Positions 56,010 through 63,510 of a stretch of 64,000 nucleotides of DNA are shown here, piece by piece (position 1 is the stretch's first letter; every line of letters starts with the position of its first letter). The stretch is from Sinomicrobium sp. (GTDB taxonomy: Bacteria; Bacteroidota; Bacteroidia; Flavobacteriales; Flavobacteriaceae), in contig JAJUFH010000007.1 of assembly GCA_029266035.1 (NCBI GenBank), positions 38,383-102,382 of the forward strand. The letters run 5' to 3'. The notes below the pieces were generated by a model. That model ran no database searches and was not told the DNA's origin. It saw only the letters and a program-made list of their open reading frames with translations. The position numbers were made by a program, and so were the translations under genes.

Positions 56010-59000
56010 ATGATAAACAGCTACCTCTTAAAACTGAAATACACCAGTCTTTTAATTTTGTTATTGGCTTCAGGAATTCGAGCCGAAGCCATGGAAATTT
56101 TTGTAAAAACACTGACAGATCATACCTTTACTCTGGAGGTGGAGAGCGGTGATACTATTGAACAAGTCAAACAGAAAATACAAGATAAAGAAGGTTTTCC
56201 AGTAGAGCTGCAGCGGCTCATTTTTGATGGAAAACTGTTGGAAGACGAACGCACTTTGTCGGATTACAACGTACAAAAGGAGAGCACGCTACATTTGGTG
56301 ATATACGATCAAGGGGATGCTTTTATCACCACTTGGGAAGTTACTGATGAAGATCGAATGGTTGAGATTATTGTCAATCCCAATGTGTCAGGTTATAATT
56401 TTACCGTGGATTGGGGTGATGGCAATGTAAGCGAAAACCAAAATGGCAATCTAAACCACCACTATGCCGATGGAGCTAATGAATATACCATAACCATCAG
56501 TGGAGACTTCCCTGCATTGTATCAACCCGGGCCAAAGTTGAAAACCATTGAGCAGTGGGGAAATTTGGAGTGGAAATCTATGGAAGGTGCGTTTTCTGCC
56601 ACGGTCGATCTGCTTATCAAGGATACAAGAGCACCAAACCTGAGCCATGTGACCAATATGATCCGGATGTTTGCAAATTCAGAGGGCTTCCAGGGAGACC
56701 TGGGTAATTGGGATGTATCCAAAGTGACTACGATGATGGAGCTATTTGCAGGTGCAAAGAATTTTAGTGCGAATATCCGCGATTGGCAGCCAGTATCGGT
56801 AACCAATATGACCCGGATGTTTGCAAGTACAGAAGGTTTTCAGGAAGACCTGAGTAGTTGGGATGTATCCAAAGTGACGACGATGGAGGAGATGTTTGCA
56901 GGTGCAAAGGACATCAATGGTTCGTTGGCAGGCTGGACGCCAGGACTGGCATTGGATGCTGGCTGTGATTTAAGCAATATGTTCCTTCAAGCAGAATCTT
57001 TCAACCAGGATCTGAGTACCTGGGATGTATCTAAGGTAAGCAATATGTTCCAAATGTTCCGAGGTGCCAAGGCTTTCAATGGTTCGTTGGCAGGCTGGAC
57101 ACCGGGATTGGCATTGGATGCTGGCTGTAGTCTAAGCGGTATGTTCTTTGATGCAGCATCCTTCAACCAGGATCTGAGTACCTGGGATGTATCTAAGGTA
57201 AGCAATATGTTCCAAATGTTCCAGGGTGCCAAAGCTTTCAATGGCTCGCTGTCAGGCTGGACACCGGGATTGGCATTGGACGCTGGCTGTACTCTAAGCG
57301 GTATGTTCCTTGATGTAGCATCCTTCAATCAAGATCTGAGCAGCTGGGATGTATCTAAGGTAAGCAGTATGTTCCAAATGTTCAGGGGTGCCAAAGCTTT
57401 CAATGGTTCGCTGTCAGGCTGGACACCAGGACTGTCATTGGACGCTGGCTGTACTCTAAGCGGTATGTTCTTTGACGCAGCATCCTTCAACCAGGATCTG
57501 AGCAGCTGGGATGTATCTAAGGTAAGCAGTATGTTCCAAATGTTCAGGGGTGCCAAAGCTTTCAATGGTTCGCTGTCAGGCTGGACACCGGGGCTGTCAT
57601 TGGATGCCAGCTGTACTCTAAGCGGTATGTTCCTTGATGCAGCATCCTTCGACCAGAACTTGGGAACTTGGGATATATCTAAGGTGAACAATATGTTTAC
57701 AATGCTTAATAGATCGGGTATGTCGACCGCAAATTACGATGCCACCTTAACGGGTTGGGCAGGGCAGGAGGATATACCGCAGGGAATCACTTTTGGGGCA
57801 TCCGGTGTCGCCTATTGTGCCAGTGCAGTTGCCCGGGCGACGCTGGAAACAGAACACAATTGGACATTCACCGATGGGGGACAGGCAGCGGATTGTGATG
57901 GCACAATTCCCGTTAACCCCAACAACAAAGGTGTTGTCTTCGTGGATATCAATGTGGATACCGATGCTGTGGACTATATCGGCGATGGCAGCAGTTGGAC
58001 AAATGCCATACCCGAGCTGGCCGATGCCCTAAAGTGGGCCCGGGAGCAATACGATGCCGACAACACCTGGTTGCAAAACGACAGTCTGCAGATATACGTA
58101 GCCGAAGGAATCTATAAACCTTTGTACAGAGCCGAAGATGGCAATTATACCACAGCCACTCCCAATGACCGCAACAATGCTTTTGTAATAGTGAATAACG
58201 TACAGCTCTACGGTGGTTTTCCCAAAGGAGGAGCCAGTTTTGAGAACCGCAATCGGGAAATGTACAAAACGACACTTAGTGGTGATTTGAATGGCGATGA
58301 TGCAGCGGATTTTACAAATTACGAAGATAACGCCTATCATGTGTTGATTGCTGTCGGTGAGATGCAAAATGCTCTGATCGATGGCTTTACGGTAGAGGGA
58401 GGAAATGCCAATGGAAGCTTTAATAGCCCCATCACTGTAGGAGGTGTGGAAGGGATTATCCCTGCCGTAGGTGGGGGAATGATCAATGCCAGTACTATTG
58501 AGGTAGTCTATACCAATTTCACAAAAAACAGAGGAACGATTTGCGGCGCATGGGGGAATTTGATAGGTGATCCGGTATTGAAATATGTAGAGATCTCAGG
58601 AAATCAAGGAAATAATTCCGGTGGATGGTATAATAATGACGGCAACGCCAGTCTGACCAATGTGTTGTTTAAAGATAATGGTGTAAGCTGGTATCACGCC
58701 AATGGTAGTCCTAATTTGACCAATGTTACTATGCTCGACAATTGGACCATAGGGACATCAAACCAGCCGGTAGCCCCGAAGATATACAATAGCATTGTAC
58801 AAGGAGATGAAAATCAGGAGTCCTTTCCCACAGAATACATCTTGAGAAATACCGTGGTCAACAACACTTTGTACGATCAAGCGGGAGACCAACAAACACT
58901 TTCGGGTAGTGTAGTGGATGAAGCAACGGGTCATTTGTTTCTCGAAAGCCCCGCTGTTAACGCCGGAGACAACCAACTATTGGCAGAGGCTCTTTACGGT

Positions 59001-62000
59001 AATGGAGGAACATTAAATGGAGCCGAAGCTGATCTAGACGGCGAACTTAGGGTATATGACTTTGACAACGGTGGGATTGTCGATATAGGCGCCTACGAAT
59101 ATCAGGGAACCCCTGTGACGATCACCCCCGACAACAACATCCTCTATGTCGCTAAAAAAGCTCCCAATAGCGATGGCAGTGGTCGTAATTGGGATAACGC
59201 CATACTCGAACTTAGCGATGCCTTGGCCTGGGCCAAAGAAAACGAAGAGCGATGGACGGAAACAGAACCGCTTCAAATATGGGTAGCTGCAGAAACCTAC
59301 CAACCCGAGCAAGGCGCGTCCTTTACTATGGTCAATAACGTAAAAATATACGGCGGTTTTCCCGCAGAAGGAGGCAGTTTTGAAGACCGCGATTGGGAAA
59401 ACAATAAAACCACCTTACAGGGCAATAGTAGTGGTGTGATTCACAATGAGTACACCGAAGACAATCCTTTGACCGATACCGCCGTATTGGACGGTTTTAC
59501 TGTTACGGGAGGGGATTCAAACAGCGGTGGTGGTGTGTATAATAGATATAGTTCTGCAGTTTTGACTAATGTGGTGATTACGGATAATGTGGCTAATGGT
59601 AATGGCGGCGGTGTGTATAATATGAGAAGTTCTCCCGTTTTGACCAATGTGGTGATTACGGGGAATAATGCTGATGGTCGTGGCGGCGGTGTGCGTAATT
59701 TGAATAGTTCTCCCGTTTTGACCAATGTGGTGATTACGGGTAATGAGGCTAATAATCAAGGGGGTGGTGTGTATAATTTTAATAGTTCTCCAGTTTTGAC
59801 CAATGTGACCATCACAGCCAATACAGCCGATGGTGGTTCGGAATGGTATAATGGTAGTGGTACTCCAGTAATTCGCAATAGTATTATTTGGGGCAATGGT
59901 GTCGATGGGCAGCTATATAATACACAATATAGTCTGGTGCAGGGACAGACCGGGGGGTACCTTGATGAAGCTAACCACAATCTCGCTCCGGATACTGACC
60001 CGGGCTTTGCCAATCCTTCCAGCGGTGATTTTAGTTTGCTTAATACCAGTTTGGCCATCAATGCCGGAGACAATCAAGCCTATCTCGATGCCGGAGGAGA
60101 TTTGGATAATGACCTCGATTTAACGGGCAATCCTCGTCTATACGATGGCCTGGCCGATAGTGATATCATCGATATGGGCGACTACGAATATCAAGGGGAA
60201 CCGGTTCCTATTGTAAAAGAGGTGACACCTCTGGAATCCATTGAGGTAGCCTATGGTACGGAGCTGGATGCTGTAGAAAACCTTCCGGAAGAAGTTGAAG
60301 TTGTTTTAAGTGATGATACACCGCTAGTTGTAGCGCTTTCCGAACCCTCTCTTTGGACGGTTACCAGTCCCGAAGGAGGTAGTTACGACGCCCAAGTAGC
60401 CGGTACCTACGAGTTTTCTATACCTCTTGTATTACCGGAGGTAGACGAGACCCCTTATTTTACCAATCCCAATCATCTGACCGCCGAGTTGACCATCACC
60501 CTAAGTAAAGGACTTCCCGAGCTTTCAGTCGCCTGGAAGGGTACAGGTATATCTCCCGAAGACGGCCTTGCACTTACCTATGGGGATATCGGAGCGTTGA
60601 CGTTTGAGACGACCAATGAAGAAGTACCACTAAGCTATACTTTGGGTACAGAAGACCCGGAAATACTGGATATGAGCGATCTCACTAATGCAGCTGCCAT
60701 ACAGGCGGGAGCAGCCACCCTGACCATAGCCCAAGAGGCTACGGCTAATTATGAGGCGGTCACTGTTGAGATTCCTCTTACGGTAGCGCCTAAGGCTATT
60801 AGCCTGCAAGCTGTAGTGGGCGAAAAGGTATACGGCGAATCAGATCCTGATACTTTCGATTACCAGCTTTCAGAAGATACGCCCTTGGCCTTTAGCGATG
60901 TACTTTCAGATATCGTTTCAGAGGTATCACGAGAGGAAGGAGAAGCTGTAGGGGAATACGATATCCTGTTGGTATTTGAAGGTTCAAAAGCCGCCAATTA
61001 CGCTATTGACTTTGAACAGGACAACAATGCCTTTACAATTCTCCCTGCGGTGATCAGTGGTATTACCTTGGTAGACGGCAGCTATGAATACGACGGCACA
61101 CCAAAATCGTTGGAAATCACCGGCGACTTACCCGAGGGTACTGTGGTAGCCTATACTATAGACGGAGAAACAGGCAACAGCGCTACCGACGCGGGAGTTT
61201 ACAGTGTAACCGCTACGATCAGCGGATCAAATTATCAAACCCAAGAATTGATTGCTACCCTTGAAATAAGCCCTGCAGCGATCAGCGGTATTACTTTGGA
61301 AGACGATAGCTATGAATACGATGGCACGTCCAAATCACTGGAAATTACAGGTACCCTGCCCGAGGGCAGTACGGTGAGCTATACCATTGATGGCATTTCG
61401 GGTAATACCGCTACCGATGTGGGAGTTTATAGTGTAGTAGCTACCATTAGCGGATCAAATTATCAAACCAAAGAATTGATTGCTACCCTTGAAGTAAGCC
61501 CTGCAGCGATCAGCGGTATTACTTTGGCAGACGACAGCTATGAATACGATGGCACGTCCAAATCACTGGAAATTACAGGTACCCTGCCCGAGGGCAGTAC
61601 GGTGGCCTATACCATTGATGGCATTCCGGGTAATACCGCTACCGATGTGGGAATTTATAGTGTAGTAGCTACCATTAGCGGATCGAATTATCAAACCCAA
61701 GAATTGACCGCTACCTTAGAAATAAGTGCAGCCACGACTACGGAGGTGACTGTAGTGATAGAAGGTCAAGTTTTTTACCCGCATCCCGATGAGGAAATCA
61801 ATTACCTTGTGGATTGCAGTTCGGATACGGAAGTTGCGATAAGCATTACGGCAACACTTGGCGCCACAGTATCTCCGTCACCGGAGTTTACTATATCTAC
61901 TCCCCAGGCAGGTATCTACATCCGTGAGCTGAGTGTGACCACCCAAGACGGGCAGCATATACAGAGGTACACCATTCGTGTAGAAAAGCGATTTAGCTTT

Positions 62001-62501
62001 GCGGATATTGTAGAGCAGAAGTTTAACAACGTACTGTTGGTGAACAACAATCCCGCTACCAACGGTGGCTATAATTTTGTTTCGTACACCTGGTATCGCA
62101 ACGGCAGTGTAGTGGGTAATGATCAGTACTATTCGGCAGGGGATAGGGCTTCTGATTTATTAGACCCCAATGCACTCTATGAGGTAGAACTCACCACTTC
62201 CGATGGAAGCGTGCTTCGCAGCTGTGTCGGTCAGGTGGAATTGGAGCGCAGCGGAGAGATAGTGGTATATCCCAACCCTGTTATCAGTGGGGATGTAGTA
62301 AACATCCGCGCCGATCTTTCTCGTGAAGAACTCAAGGATATGCAGGTACAGTTATTTGACCAGAGAGGAAGGGAAGTCCACCGCTACACGACCAGTGATG
62401 TAAAAAGTAAACTTTCGGTGTCAAACTTGCTTCCGGGAGTGTATATTGTGAGATGTACTACCGCCGGAAGGCAGGAGACCTTCAAGATAATTGTGAGATA
62501 G
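56010..62501 (+). CDS. Giant T9SS-secreted repeat protein with N-terminal ubiquitin domain
   Basis: 2163 residues. Signal peptide 1-27 ending AEA; ubiquitin-like domain 28-98 (MEIFVKTL start, [25 protein letters not shown]), identical to human ubiquitin at 54 of the first 70 positions by hand count, but ending IYDQGD instead of RLRGG. Then a PKD-like TVDWGDG domain (about 105-195), DUF285/BspA-type repeats (about 205-575; [18 protein letters not shown]), two right-handed beta-helix regions (about 638-1040 and 1040-1400), further beta domains, MBG repeats (about 1600-1908) and a T9SS type A sorting domain (2082-2163; [25 protein letters not shown]). It should be exported and attached to the cell surface, with the ubiquitin fold at the outer tip. 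The barrel gene follows. Function unknown. Confidence 0.92.
56091..56303 (+). other. Segment coding the ubiquitin-like domain
   Basis: Codes residues 28-98. Lysines equal to ubiquitin K6, K27, K29, K33, K48 and K63 are kept, K11 is His. The hydrophobic patch L8, I44, H68, V70 is kept. The diglycine tail is missing. Codon choice looks like the rest of the gene, so a transfer, if any, is not recent. Confidence 0.88.
56847..57656 (+). repeat. 162-bp tandem repeats in the DUF285 region (five units)
   Basis: Unit starts (GAC/GAT-CTG) at 56847, 57009, 57171, 57333 and 57495, an exact 162-bp period (54 codons); a diverged sixth begins at 57657. The middle units differ by only a few bases, which points to recent duplication or gene conversion. 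Confidence 0.93.
59559..59870 (+). repeat. 78-bp tandem repeats in the second beta-helix (four units)
   Basis: Units start at 59559, 59637, 59715 and 59793 (VLTNVVIT...NSSP, 26 codons), each one coil pair of the beta-helix. Confidence 0.9.
61052..61735 (+). repeat. 228-bp tandem MBG-domain repeats (three units)
   Basis: Units start at 61052, 61280 and 61508 (ISGITL...YEYDGT...SGSNYQT, 76 codons). Units two and three are almost identical at DNA level. Confidence 0.92.
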
Positions 62502-62646
62502 GAGGAGGTTTTGAGATAGAGAGATGTGGTGTAGTGGTGAAGGAGAGATGAGGAGACAAAGGTTCATTCAGAGCACAGTGCAGAATCTCTTTGCGAGCTC
62601 AAAAAGAACAGTAAAAAAAACTAAAAACCAAACAAGAACAACAAAC

Positions 62647-63510
62647 ATGACAACAACATACTCATTCCGAATTGGTGTATTGCTATTACTCTGTGTGTTG
62701 ACTTTCTCTCAAAGCTATGGTCAGCAACGCCACGAATTGTCTGCCCATGTGAGTGGGGTGTTTGCCTCCTTACAGTACAAAGTACATCAAGGCAAGCGCA
62801 GCGGAGACGACAATATGGGAGTGGGGCTTGCTTATGCGTATTTCCTTAACGAGTACTGGAGTTTAGGGCTTGGTTTAGAATATCAGACCTACAATACCCG
62901 AATGTTGCTTCAAAACTTCGAGGGGAGTCAGGCTGTTACCGATAGTGAAGGAGATGCTTTTGAGTTCCGATACCGCAGCAGTGGGTATAAGGAACAGCAA
63001 GAAGTGAGCTATTTGAATATTCCGCTTACGGTAAGCTATCAGACCAAAGGTCAATACACCCGTTTTTACGCTTCTGCCGGAGTTCAACTCGGACTAGCCT
63101 TGGCGTCGGAATATCAAAGCAGCATTAGTAAACTACGTACCGGCGGCTACTATCCGGAGTGGAATGCCTTTCTGGAAGCGCCAAAGTTTATGGGTTTTGG
63201 AAATTTTGGAGATCAGCAATCTGCTGCAGCCGATTTGGAATTGGACAATTCTTATAGTCTGCTTGCAGAGGTTGGTATCAAGCAACTTATCGGCAATAAG
63301 AGCGCTATTTATCTCGGTGTTTTTATCACCTACGGACTCAATACCATCAACACCACGGGCGATGCTTCACTCGTAGAGTACAGTCTAGCAAACCCCGGAG
63401 AATTCCTTTATAATCCCGTCTTTAATTCCACCTCCAACAGCCAACGATACACCGACGATGTACGCACCTTTGCCACAGGAGTGAAATTGAGGTACGGATT
63501 TGGTTGGTAA
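62647..63510 (+). CDS. Outer-membrane beta-barrel protein next to the ubiquitin-headed gene
   Basis: 287 residues from the ATG at 62647, which begins a signal peptide (MTTTYSFRIGVLLLLCVLTFSQSYGQ). Mature strands: HVSGVFASLQYKV, VGLAYAYFLNEYWSLGLGLEYQTY, YLNIPLTVSYQTKGQYTRFYASAGVQLGLAL, SLLAEVGIKQLIGNKSAIYLGVFITYGL and final VKLRYGFGW, so about ten to twelve strands of the OMP_b-brl type. The in-frame ATG at 62524 lies in a GAGATGAGG-type repeat and is rejected. It is 145 bases after the giant gene and may be its outer-membrane partner, by analogy with cargo-PorP pairs, but it is not itself a PorP/SprF protein. Confidence 0.85.
   Translation: MTTTYSFRIGVLLLLCVLTFSQSYGQQRHELSAHVSGVFASLQYKVHQGKRSGDDNMGVGLAYAYFLNEYWSLGLGLEYQTYNTRMLLQNFEGSQAVTDSEGDAFEFRYRSSGYKEQQEVSYLNIPLTVSYQTKGQYTRFYASAGVQLGLALASEYQSSISKLRTGGYYPEWNAFLEAPKFMGFGNFGDQQSAAADLELDNSYSLLAEVGIKQLIGNKSAIYLGVFITYGLNTINTTGDASLVEYSLANPGEFLYNPVFNSTSNSQRYTDDVRTFATGVKLRYGFGW

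What the first reader, a model, noticed from the sequence alone, without database searches (positions are those of the whole stretch)
56010..62501. A surface protein headed by a ubiquitin domain about 77% identical to human ubiquitin
Residues 28-97 match human ubiquitin at 54 of 70 positions (counted by hand against the sequence I remember). The fold core, six of seven lysines and the L8/I44/H68/V70 patch that most ubiquitin receptors bind are kept. This is fused to DUF285 repeats, beta-helices, MBG repeats and a T9SS type A sorting domain. One secreted bacterial ubiquitin is known from Bacteroides fragilis (BfUbb), but I know of no described case of ubiquitin as tip domain of a giant T9SS protein. 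A possible role is binding to, or decoying, eukaryotic ubiquitin-binding proteins, or a structural cap. Function is inference.
Basis: partly seen in the sequence, partly recalled or inferred. Interest (0 to 1): 0.95.

Follow-up and report, generated by a model that had tools for sequence, protein, structure and literature searches.

The report
Ubiquitin-headed bacterial surface protein
A flavobacterium carries a gene for a very long protein, predicted to be displayed on the cell surface, that begins with a close copy of the eukaryotic protein ubiquitin; the same ubiquitin head sits behind a predicted export signal in other bacteria of many phyla and in a few archaea, and there it likely serves as a binding tip rather than as a tag put on other proteins.

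Summary
The 2163-aa ORF at 56010-62501 has a predicted 27-aa signal peptide, then ubiquitin residues 1-71 (54 of 71 identical to human; 95 bits to PF00240; model pLDDT 95-98, matching solved ubiquitins), DUF285 repeats, a beta-helix-like part, MBG repeats and a T9SS type A tail. The diglycine tail is absent. It is not unique: profile surveys gave 31 distinct ubiquitin domains (seeds and one duplicate left out), 28 directly behind a predicted signal peptide (chance about 6%). A pattern search placed such domains in 11 phyla by record title. They are joined to T9SS tails, IPTL-CTERM, autotransporter barrels, SLH domains or nothing. Six flavobacterial proteins are only signal peptide, ubiquitin and T9SS tail, so the ubiquitin is probably the working part. 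Best reading: a displayed protein-binding head working through the F4 face, probably against neighbouring bacteria as secreted BfUbb does; the partner is unknown. BfUbb makes secreted bacterial ubiquitin a known kind; ubiquitin as interchangeable head of anchored surface proteins was not seen in ten paper searches.

The parts
56010..62501 (+). Whole ORF, 2163 aa, ubiquitin-headed T9SS-type surface protein
56010..56090 (+). Predicted signal peptide (27 aa, hydrophobic core, AEA before Met28)
   Evidence: sequence; hydropathy score 2.86 and A at -1 by my own criterion; no dedicated signal-peptide program was on hand
56091..56303 (+). Ubiquitin domain, human residues 1-71 (protein residues 28-98); no RLRGG tail
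56304..57917 (+). Stalk part 1: PKD-like start (FITTW...DWGDG, named by eye) and DUF285/PARCEL repeats; similar stalks in 10 of 39 other genomes searched, and none of the eight starts looked at has ubiquitin before it
57918..59108 (+). Stalk part 2: beta-helix-like region (fold not tested) ending in a choice-of-anchor Q stretch; 35% identical to the stalk of another ubiquitin-headed protein (L087)
61290..61472 (+). Best of three MBG_3 repeats
62265..62498 (+). T9SS type A C-terminal sorting domain
   Evidence: SprA present in the same genome
62524..63510 (+). Downstream gene, weak matches (under the cut-offs) to outer-membrane beta-barrel proteins, 22 bases after the stop; role unknown

Best explanation
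This is a giant protein, predicted to be carried to the cell surface by the type IX secretion system, whose first domain after its predicted signal peptide is a ubiquitin domain that most likely works as a protein-binding head and not as a conjugated tag. Shown by sequence: the ubiquitin domain, the lost diglycine tail, the T9SS tail, the SprA gene in the genome, and ubiquitin domains behind signal-peptide-like stretches elsewhere with unrelated anchors or none. Inferred: the signal peptide is cut so that ubiquitin Met1 becomes the mature N-terminus; the T9SS anchors the protein with the head outward on a DUF285/beta-helix-like/MBG stalk; the head binds a partner through the F4 face (Q2, F4, T12, T14, E64, T66), the surface conserved in the class. 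My choice of partner is a protein on neighbouring, probably related bacteria, because the one studied relative (BfUbb, same phylum, same signal peptide-Met1 layout) acts on other bacteria. That last step is the weakest.
For: Fold and identity. Not conjugable by the known route: RLRGG absent here; GG at 75-76 in 0 of 28 profile-found domains and in 3 of 64 unique domains (pattern-found plus early survey loci). Ubiquitin itself is displayed: six of six short flavobacterial proteins (169-176 aa) are signal peptide, ubiquitin and a T9SS tail over the curated cut-off, and L006 is signal peptide, ubiquitin and IPTL-CTERM. Head is modular: window relatives L093 and L091 have a predicted signal peptide leading straight into the same stalk without ubiquitin; L087 has ubiquitin on a region 35% identical to the window's second stalk part. 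F4 face more conserved than random surface sets in 28 profile-found domains (P 0.0014; F4 in 28 of 28), in its Bacteroidota part (P 0.025) and Verrucomicrobiota part (P 0.0008) and, more weakly, in 58 pattern-found domains (P 0.015-0.031; four of these domains are also in the profile set), and not in 95 eukaryotic-type units of like divergence (P 0.36). Purifying selection: median dN/dS 0.144 in 143 of 2080 pairs, those with dS under 1.5. Precedent: BfUbb, secreted, mature protein starts at ubiquitin Met1, inhibits other B. fragilis strains (PMC5705921, passages).
Against: No partner is known for any anchored member. The stringent F4 set (Q2, F4, T12) is weaker: P 0.03 in the profile set, 0.09-0.14 in the pattern set; I changed the F4 group from 3 residues (2, 4, 14) to 6, and four groups were tested. 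Sequences are related, so the P values are not strict. The 20 closest pairs have dN/dS from 0.06 to 0.50. The window has E in place of Q2. BfUbb's C-terminal cysteine is missing here, and a free 76-residue secreted protein is a different thing from an anchored 2163-aa protein. Archaea, Cohnella and Prochlorococcus with such heads do not obviously fit interbacterial killing. F4-face residues may be kept for stability near a fresh N-terminus.
Confidence: 0.4

Rival explanations
1. Eukaryote-facing mimic or decoy: the displayed ubiquitin binds ubiquitin-binding proteins of protists, algae or animals, through the I44 patch or another face.
For: This protein keeps L8, I44, G47, K48, H68 and V70. 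High overall identity to eukaryotic ubiquitin (mean 0.77 in profile-found domains). A few record titles name faeces or rectum (L006, L055). BfUbb inhibits in vitro ubiquitination and forms a covalent complex with human E1 (PMC3352274, passages). The F4 patch itself is bound by some eukaryotic receptors (passages), so F4-face conservation does not exclude this rival.
Against: I44-patch positions are less conserved than other surface positions (P 0.013-0.016 in the profile set; 0.011-0.024 in the pattern set); K48 kept in 50%, Q49 in 36%. The C-terminal tail is lost. Extracellular display does not meet cytosolic ubiquitin receptors unless membranes break.
Confidence: 0.25
2. Structural head: a stable, fast-folding cap that protects the N-terminus or aids export and folding, with no ligand.
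For: Core residues are the best kept group apart from the F4 face; the head is fused to very different partners.
Against: Proteins made only of signal peptide, ubiquitin and anchor have nothing to cap. Stalk relatives do without it. Constraint on a defined surface patch is not expected.
Confidence: 0.2
3. Recent passenger: ubiquitin genes picked up from eukaryotes that happen to be exported, with little selected use.
For: Patchy distribution: 6 of 395 Bacteroidota, 8 of 397 in the family, 2 of 398 Pseudomonadota (seed included), 14 of 387 Verrucomicrobiota (seed included); none in the 5 other genomes of the same genus.
Against: Synonymous sites are near saturation (median pS 0.89) while proteins stay alike (median pN 0.15); repeated fusion to real anchors; a single origin of the bacterial domains is not rejected (p-AU 0.50), though 70 columns cannot show it.
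Confidence: 0.12
4. Assembly chimera or eukaryotic contamination.
For: A few other hits in the set look cytosolic or eukaryote-like (for example L022, L025, L029).
Against: Single open frame through signal peptide, ubiquitin and bacterial stalk on a 102-kb contig, no N; same layout in 14 strain-level records by title and on a complete plasmid of Ruminococcus albus 7.
Confidence: 0.01

Closest known systems
BfUbb (ubb) of Bacteroides fragilis, secreted bacterial ubiquitin
   Same: Signal peptide followed directly by ubiquitin Met1, no diglycine, same phylum (PMC5705921 and PMC3352274, passages seen). A Bacteroides locus that I take to be of this type, L075, was found by the same search and keeps Q2, F4, T12, T14 and T66.
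   Different: BfUbb is a free 76-residue protein with a C-terminal cysteine and known antibacterial activity; the window protein is 2163 aa, has a T9SS tail and no such cysteine, and no activity is known. The periplasmic isomerase target (Jiang 2023) is recalled; I saw only the reference. Uptake by a SusCD transporter (Tong 2024): only the title seen.
Eukaryotic ubiquitin (PF00240)
   Same: Fold, 54 of 71 residues, six of seven lysines
   Different: Predicted to be exported, no RLRGG, fused by its C-terminal end to a stalk, no conjugation possible through the missing glycines
DUF285/PARCEL-repeat surface proteins with T9SS tails
   Same: Stalk and sorting tail
   Different: L093 and L091 start with the stalk after the predicted signal peptide; here ubiquitin is placed between. 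Whether those relatives have T9SS tails was not tested
Secreted ubiquitin effectors of plant-parasitic nematodes (Globodera)
   Same: Signal peptide plus ubiquitin (mentioned in PMC5705921, passage)
   Different: Eukaryotic; 12-residue C-terminal extension cleaved off in the plant

Membership tests
Ubiquitin family (PF00240) | Profile score over the curated cut-off | tested here: met
   95 bits against 25.4; 101.5 bits in the genome search
Ubiquitin family (PF00240) | Beta-grasp fold superposing on solved ubiquitin | tested here: met
   Predicted model only: pLDDT 95-98 over residues 1-70; target-normalised TM mostly 0.87-0.97 with single ubiquitin chains
Conjugable ubiquitin modifier | C-terminal diglycine | tested here: not met
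   YDQGD in place of RLRGG, and the chain continues into the stalk. So it is ubiquitin by descent but not a modifier of the usual kind
Conjugable ubiquitin modifier | E1/E2/E3 enzymes in the same organism | not tested
   No search for these was made; only one PF00240 match in the genome
BfUbb-type secreted bacterial ubiquitin | Signal peptide with ubiquitin Met1 directly after it | tested here: met
   AEA then Met28; hydropathy criterion; predicted only, cleavage not shown
BfUbb-type secreted bacterial ubiquitin | Free 76-residue protein ending in cysteine | tested here: not met
   2163 aa, no cysteine in the domain
BfUbb-type secreted bacterial ubiquitin | Growth inhibition of related strains | not testable with these tools
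   Needs protein and strains
T9SS type A cargo | C-terminal sorting domain over cut-off | tested here: met
   TIGR04183 53 bits, cut-off 23
T9SS type A cargo | T9SS translocon in the genome | tested here: met
   SprA 2911.8 bits, one copy; other parts not searched
DUF285/PARCEL-repeat surface protein | DUF285 repeats | tested here: met
   387.7 bits, five stretches; TIGR02167 78.9 bits

The most novel reading that the evidence does not exclude
Ubiquitin left the eukaryotes and became a general-purpose surface head in prokaryotes: a mobile module, cut free at Met1 by signal peptidase, that has been set on every major kind of cell-surface anchor in eleven phyla, archaea included, and that binds its partners through the F4 face instead of the I44 patch and without any conjugation. 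The window protein is the giant, T9SS-borne form of this class.
Probability: 0.4. Interest if true: 0.92.

Novelty: new variant of a known kind. Interest (0 to 1): 0.8.

Why it matters
Ubiquitin is the textbook eukaryote-only modifier. A class of surface-displayed, non-conjugated ubiquitins across prokaryotes would mean that its surface has a second, extracellular use under its own selection, with a different face preserved. It gives a direct test (what binds the F4 face of these heads?), a possible new group of interbacterial or microbe-eukaryote contact proteins, and a caution for annotation: the start codon of such genes can be placed at ubiquitin Met1, hiding the signal peptide. PMC5705921 reports this for ubb (passage), and P0306 of Pseudalgibacter alginicilyticus is listed with 154 aa against 173 aa for the matching L122, the difference being the 19-aa predicted signal peptide.

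Tried and rejected
Assembly chimera: rejected. I44-patch retention as evidence of receptor mimicry: rejected for the class, because it is among the less conserved surfaces; but I also had to drop my own first idea that this laxity is peculiar to the bacterial proteins, since divergent eukaryotic-type units show it too (P 0.024). A28Q (VKQKIQDKE) as a bacterial signature: dropped, because 47 of 58 pattern-found domains carry the very search word KQKIQDKE, and profile-found domains have Q in only 12 of 28. Tree of bacterial against eukaryotic-type domains (57 rows against 31; every second pattern-found domain and a sample of the units): unresolved with 70 columns, one origin neither shown nor rejected. 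Phage or virus origin: no match in 50,697 phage records and one weak locus in the viral contigs (40% identity). Pseudomonadota survey: besides the seed genome only one weak match without signal peptide (L102), so carriers such as the 22 loci of that phylum are rare there. Structure of the stalk: low confidence, not used. The first homologue search and the last returned mostly eukaryotic polyubiquitins; the bacterial rows were picked out by their other Pfam domains and not studied further.

One search was ungapped, so some rows with insertions are out of register (lowest identity 0.07), and so is, where this can only raise pN; one search was realigned. One search left out L084 (the same gene as L051) and the seed loci L101 and L103; domains not behind a signal peptide by my criterion (L102, L107, L125) were dropped before the conservation count. 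The profile and pattern sets share four domains (L105 is in L019, L110 in L058). One search dropped pattern-found rows under 50% identity to human over the first 70 ungapped positions. A1 took 60 of the 64 plus-strand references listed plus the window, left out three minus-strand ones (L002, L083, L085), counts L051 and L084 (one gene) twice, and cut L011, L054 and the window to 1000 aa. One search also counts overlapping loci twice (L086/L088, L051/L084). The label 'not MAG' did not work (titles had lost the prefix); I counted strain-level titles by eye instead. Core, I44, F4 and TEK residue lists are from memory.

Full report
WHAT IS THERE. The ORF at 56010-62501 (+) encodes 2163 aa. Pfam finds ubiquitin (95 bits, aa 30-98), five DUF285 stretches, three MBG_3 stretches and a Por_Secre_tail; NCBIfam adds PARCEL repeats, a choice-of-anchor Q stretch (aa 974-1032) and the T9SS type A tail at 53 bits. 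Residues 28-98 align without gaps to human ubiquitin 1-71, 54 identical. Differences include Q2E, K11H, I36F, A46D, Q49L and the loss of RLRGG. Residues L8, I44, H68 and V70 are kept. AlphaFold2 gives pLDDT 95-98 for the domain and under 50 for most of the stalk; Foldseek returns ubiquitins. The genome has one PF00240 match only, a full-length SprA and three T9SS type A tails. By a neighbouring 478-aa protein the nearest named relative is Sinomicrobium sp. M5D2P17 (84%), followed by other flavobacteria among the named rows, so I take the host for a flavobacterium.

NOT A ONE-OFF. A pattern scan of genome contigs found 88 relatives, of which 80 loci were kept. Among 100 domains in 88 loci (eight of them from genome searches; some overlap), 68 have a hydrophobic stretch and A, G or S just before ubiquitin Met1. 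The 56 such loci from the pattern scan fall into 11 phyla by record title, three loci being archaeal; many are metagenome bins, 14 have strain-level titles, in six phyla (counted by eye). That scan is biased towards the words used: 47 of 58 domains hold the word KQKIQDKE. I therefore used Pfam-profile surveys: Bacteroidota 6 of 395 genomes, the own family 8 of 397 (8 of 237 genera), Verrucomicrobiota 14 of 387 and Pseudomonadota 2 of 398, the last two including the seed genome. Relatives nearest to the window: 2 of 60 including itself. These gave 31 distinct domains besides seeds and one duplicate; 28 of 31 sit directly behind a signal-peptide-like stretch. The same criterion passes 6.0% of positions 18-39 aa after the first Met of long ORFs and 4.0% of internal positions. 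No dedicated signal-peptide predictor was available.

MANY ANCHORS, ONE HEAD. In 61 such proteins scanned one by one (one gene counted twice), 9 match the autotransporter barrel, 6 IPTL-CTERM, 3 SLH, 3 fn3, 2 dockerin at E up to 0.01. Six short flavobacterial proteins in five genera of the window's family (L002, L121, L122, L123, L124, L126; 169-176 aa) are nothing but signal peptide, ubiquitin and a T9SS type A tail over the cut-off (27.4-47.1 bits). L006 is signal peptide, ubiquitin and IPTL-CTERM; L048, L050 and L069 end in a hydrophobic stretch and basic residues without a sorting family over its cut-off. Others end after ubiquitin: L043, L075, L086 (two tandem genes), L120. L075, one of the two L086 genes and L120 carry a cysteine near the end, as reported for BfUbb. 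Relatives of the window's first stalk part occur in 10 of 39 other genomes; none of the eight starts looked at has ubiquitin before it, and in L093 and L091 a predicted signal peptide leads straight into the stalk. L087, from another Bacteroidota family, carries ubiquitin on a region 35% identical to the window's second stalk part (161 of 461 columns). So the head behaves as a module placed between signal peptide and stalk. Ruminococcus albus 7 has such a gene on plasmid pRUMAL01 (26 residues with A at -1, then Met1), and a Pseudoalteromonas plasmid has a giant Ig-like protein that starts the same way with a more diverged domain.

WHAT IS SELECTED. Among 65 domains median pS is 0.89 and pN 0.15; in 143 of 2080 pairs with dS under 1.5 the median dN/dS is 0.144, and the 20 closest pairs range from 0.06 to 0.50. 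Surface groups were compared with random sets of non-core positions. In the 28 profile-found domains (mean identity to human 0.77) the I44 patch is less conserved than chance sets (P 0.016) and the F4 face (Q2, F4, T12, T14, E64, T66) more conserved (P 0.0014), F4 being invariant; GG is present in 0 of 28. The F4 result repeats in the Bacteroidota part (13 domains, P 0.025), the Verrucomicrobiota part (15, P 0.0008) and, more weakly, in 58 pattern-found domains (P 0.015-0.031), four of which are also in the profile set. With only Q2, F4 and T12 it is weaker (P 0.03 and 0.09-0.14). The I44 patch reduced to L8, I44, H68 and V70 gives P 0.05-0.14 for lower conservation. Control: 95 eukaryotic-type units of like divergence, one per protein, cut out of the proteins (most unnamed or metagenomic), also have a variable I44 patch (P 0.024) but no F4-face excess (P 0.36); the entropy gap between the two groups is 1.17 (0.70-1.41) in the bacterial and 0.50 (0.27-0.68) in the eukaryotic-type set. 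The F4 and I44 patches and the TEK box as binding surfaces are named in PMC4134136 and PMC4197637 (passages); the residue lists are from memory. In yeast the hydrophobic patch and C-terminus are the sensitive parts and the opposite face is extremely tolerant (PMC4862753, passages). The F4 group was changed after and four groups were tested, so this is a strong hint, not proof.

HOW IT MOST LIKELY WORKS. I take it as a displayed binding head. The minimal proteins show that ubiquitin is what would be exposed; the missing tail excludes conjugation by the known route; the preserved F4 face suggests where a partner sits. In eukaryotes the F4 patch is bound by the UBAN of NEMO and by the HOIL-1L NZF (passages), so the face can bind proteins, which also keeps the eukaryote-facing rival alive. 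The partner is unknown. BfUbb, a free secreted ubiquitin of the same phylum with the same Met1 layout, inhibits other B. fragilis strains (PMC5705921, passages); its target is recalled and its uptake known to me from a title only. I therefore lean to neighbouring bacteria, at about 0.4 for the whole chain; a eukaryotic partner is the main rival (0.25), a structural cap next (0.2).

NOVELTY. Ten paper searches in an open-access library that lacks most subscription papers listed BfUbb work and, in the listings I saw, no account of ubiquitin as a head of anchored bacterial surface proteins; PMC3352274 calls its gene unique in the title and says ubiquitin had been found only in eukaryotes (passage). 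The beta-grasp survey PMC1949818 showed no such case in the passages seen. The two later BfUbb papers were not held, and one of them, on Bacteroides ubiquitin homologues, may mention more members. I rate the finding a new variant of a known kind.

Noticed in passing
L012, L017, L044, L047, L049, L053, L061, L064, L065, L067, L070, L073, L076: A second bacterial ubiquitin class, mostly in bins titled as Actinomycetota and in Actinobacteria bacterium IMCC26207 (L064): ubiquitin near the start, no signal peptide by my criterion, in most followed by a shared GVVTY-type segment; six of these 13 loci hold two or three such domains.
   Followed up: no
L027:9920-11209 and L028:9920-11212: Two Prochlorococcus genomes carry ubiquitin behind a signal peptide at the head of a protein that looks like a porin; two members of the set match the iron uptake porin model, which I take to be these.
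   Followed up: no
L005, L009, L016, L024, L033, L052, L056, L060, L063: Beta- and gammaproteobacterial members share a long N-terminal extension before the signal peptide with a loosely similar F-x-S-type motif, seen by eye.
   Followed up: no
L128:2938-3678 (Ruminococcus albus 7 plasmid pRUMAL01): Signal peptide-ubiquitin gene in a run of short hypothetical genes near a phospholipase C-domain gene and a dockerin gene.
   Followed up: partly
L043:9917-10228: A Burkholderiales bin encodes signal peptide plus ubiquitin ending exactly in LRLRGG, the full eukaryotic tail.
   Followed up: no
window 62524-63510; L129:2140-2814: A gene with weak outer-membrane beta-barrel matches lies directly after the window gene, and an annotated outer membrane beta-barrel gene lies directly before the ubiquitin-headed giant on a Pseudoalteromonas plasmid; may be coincidence.
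   Followed up: no
G000: The window's genome is 3.05 Mb while five congeners are 4.6-5.6 Mb, and it has only three T9SS type A tails.
   Followed up: no
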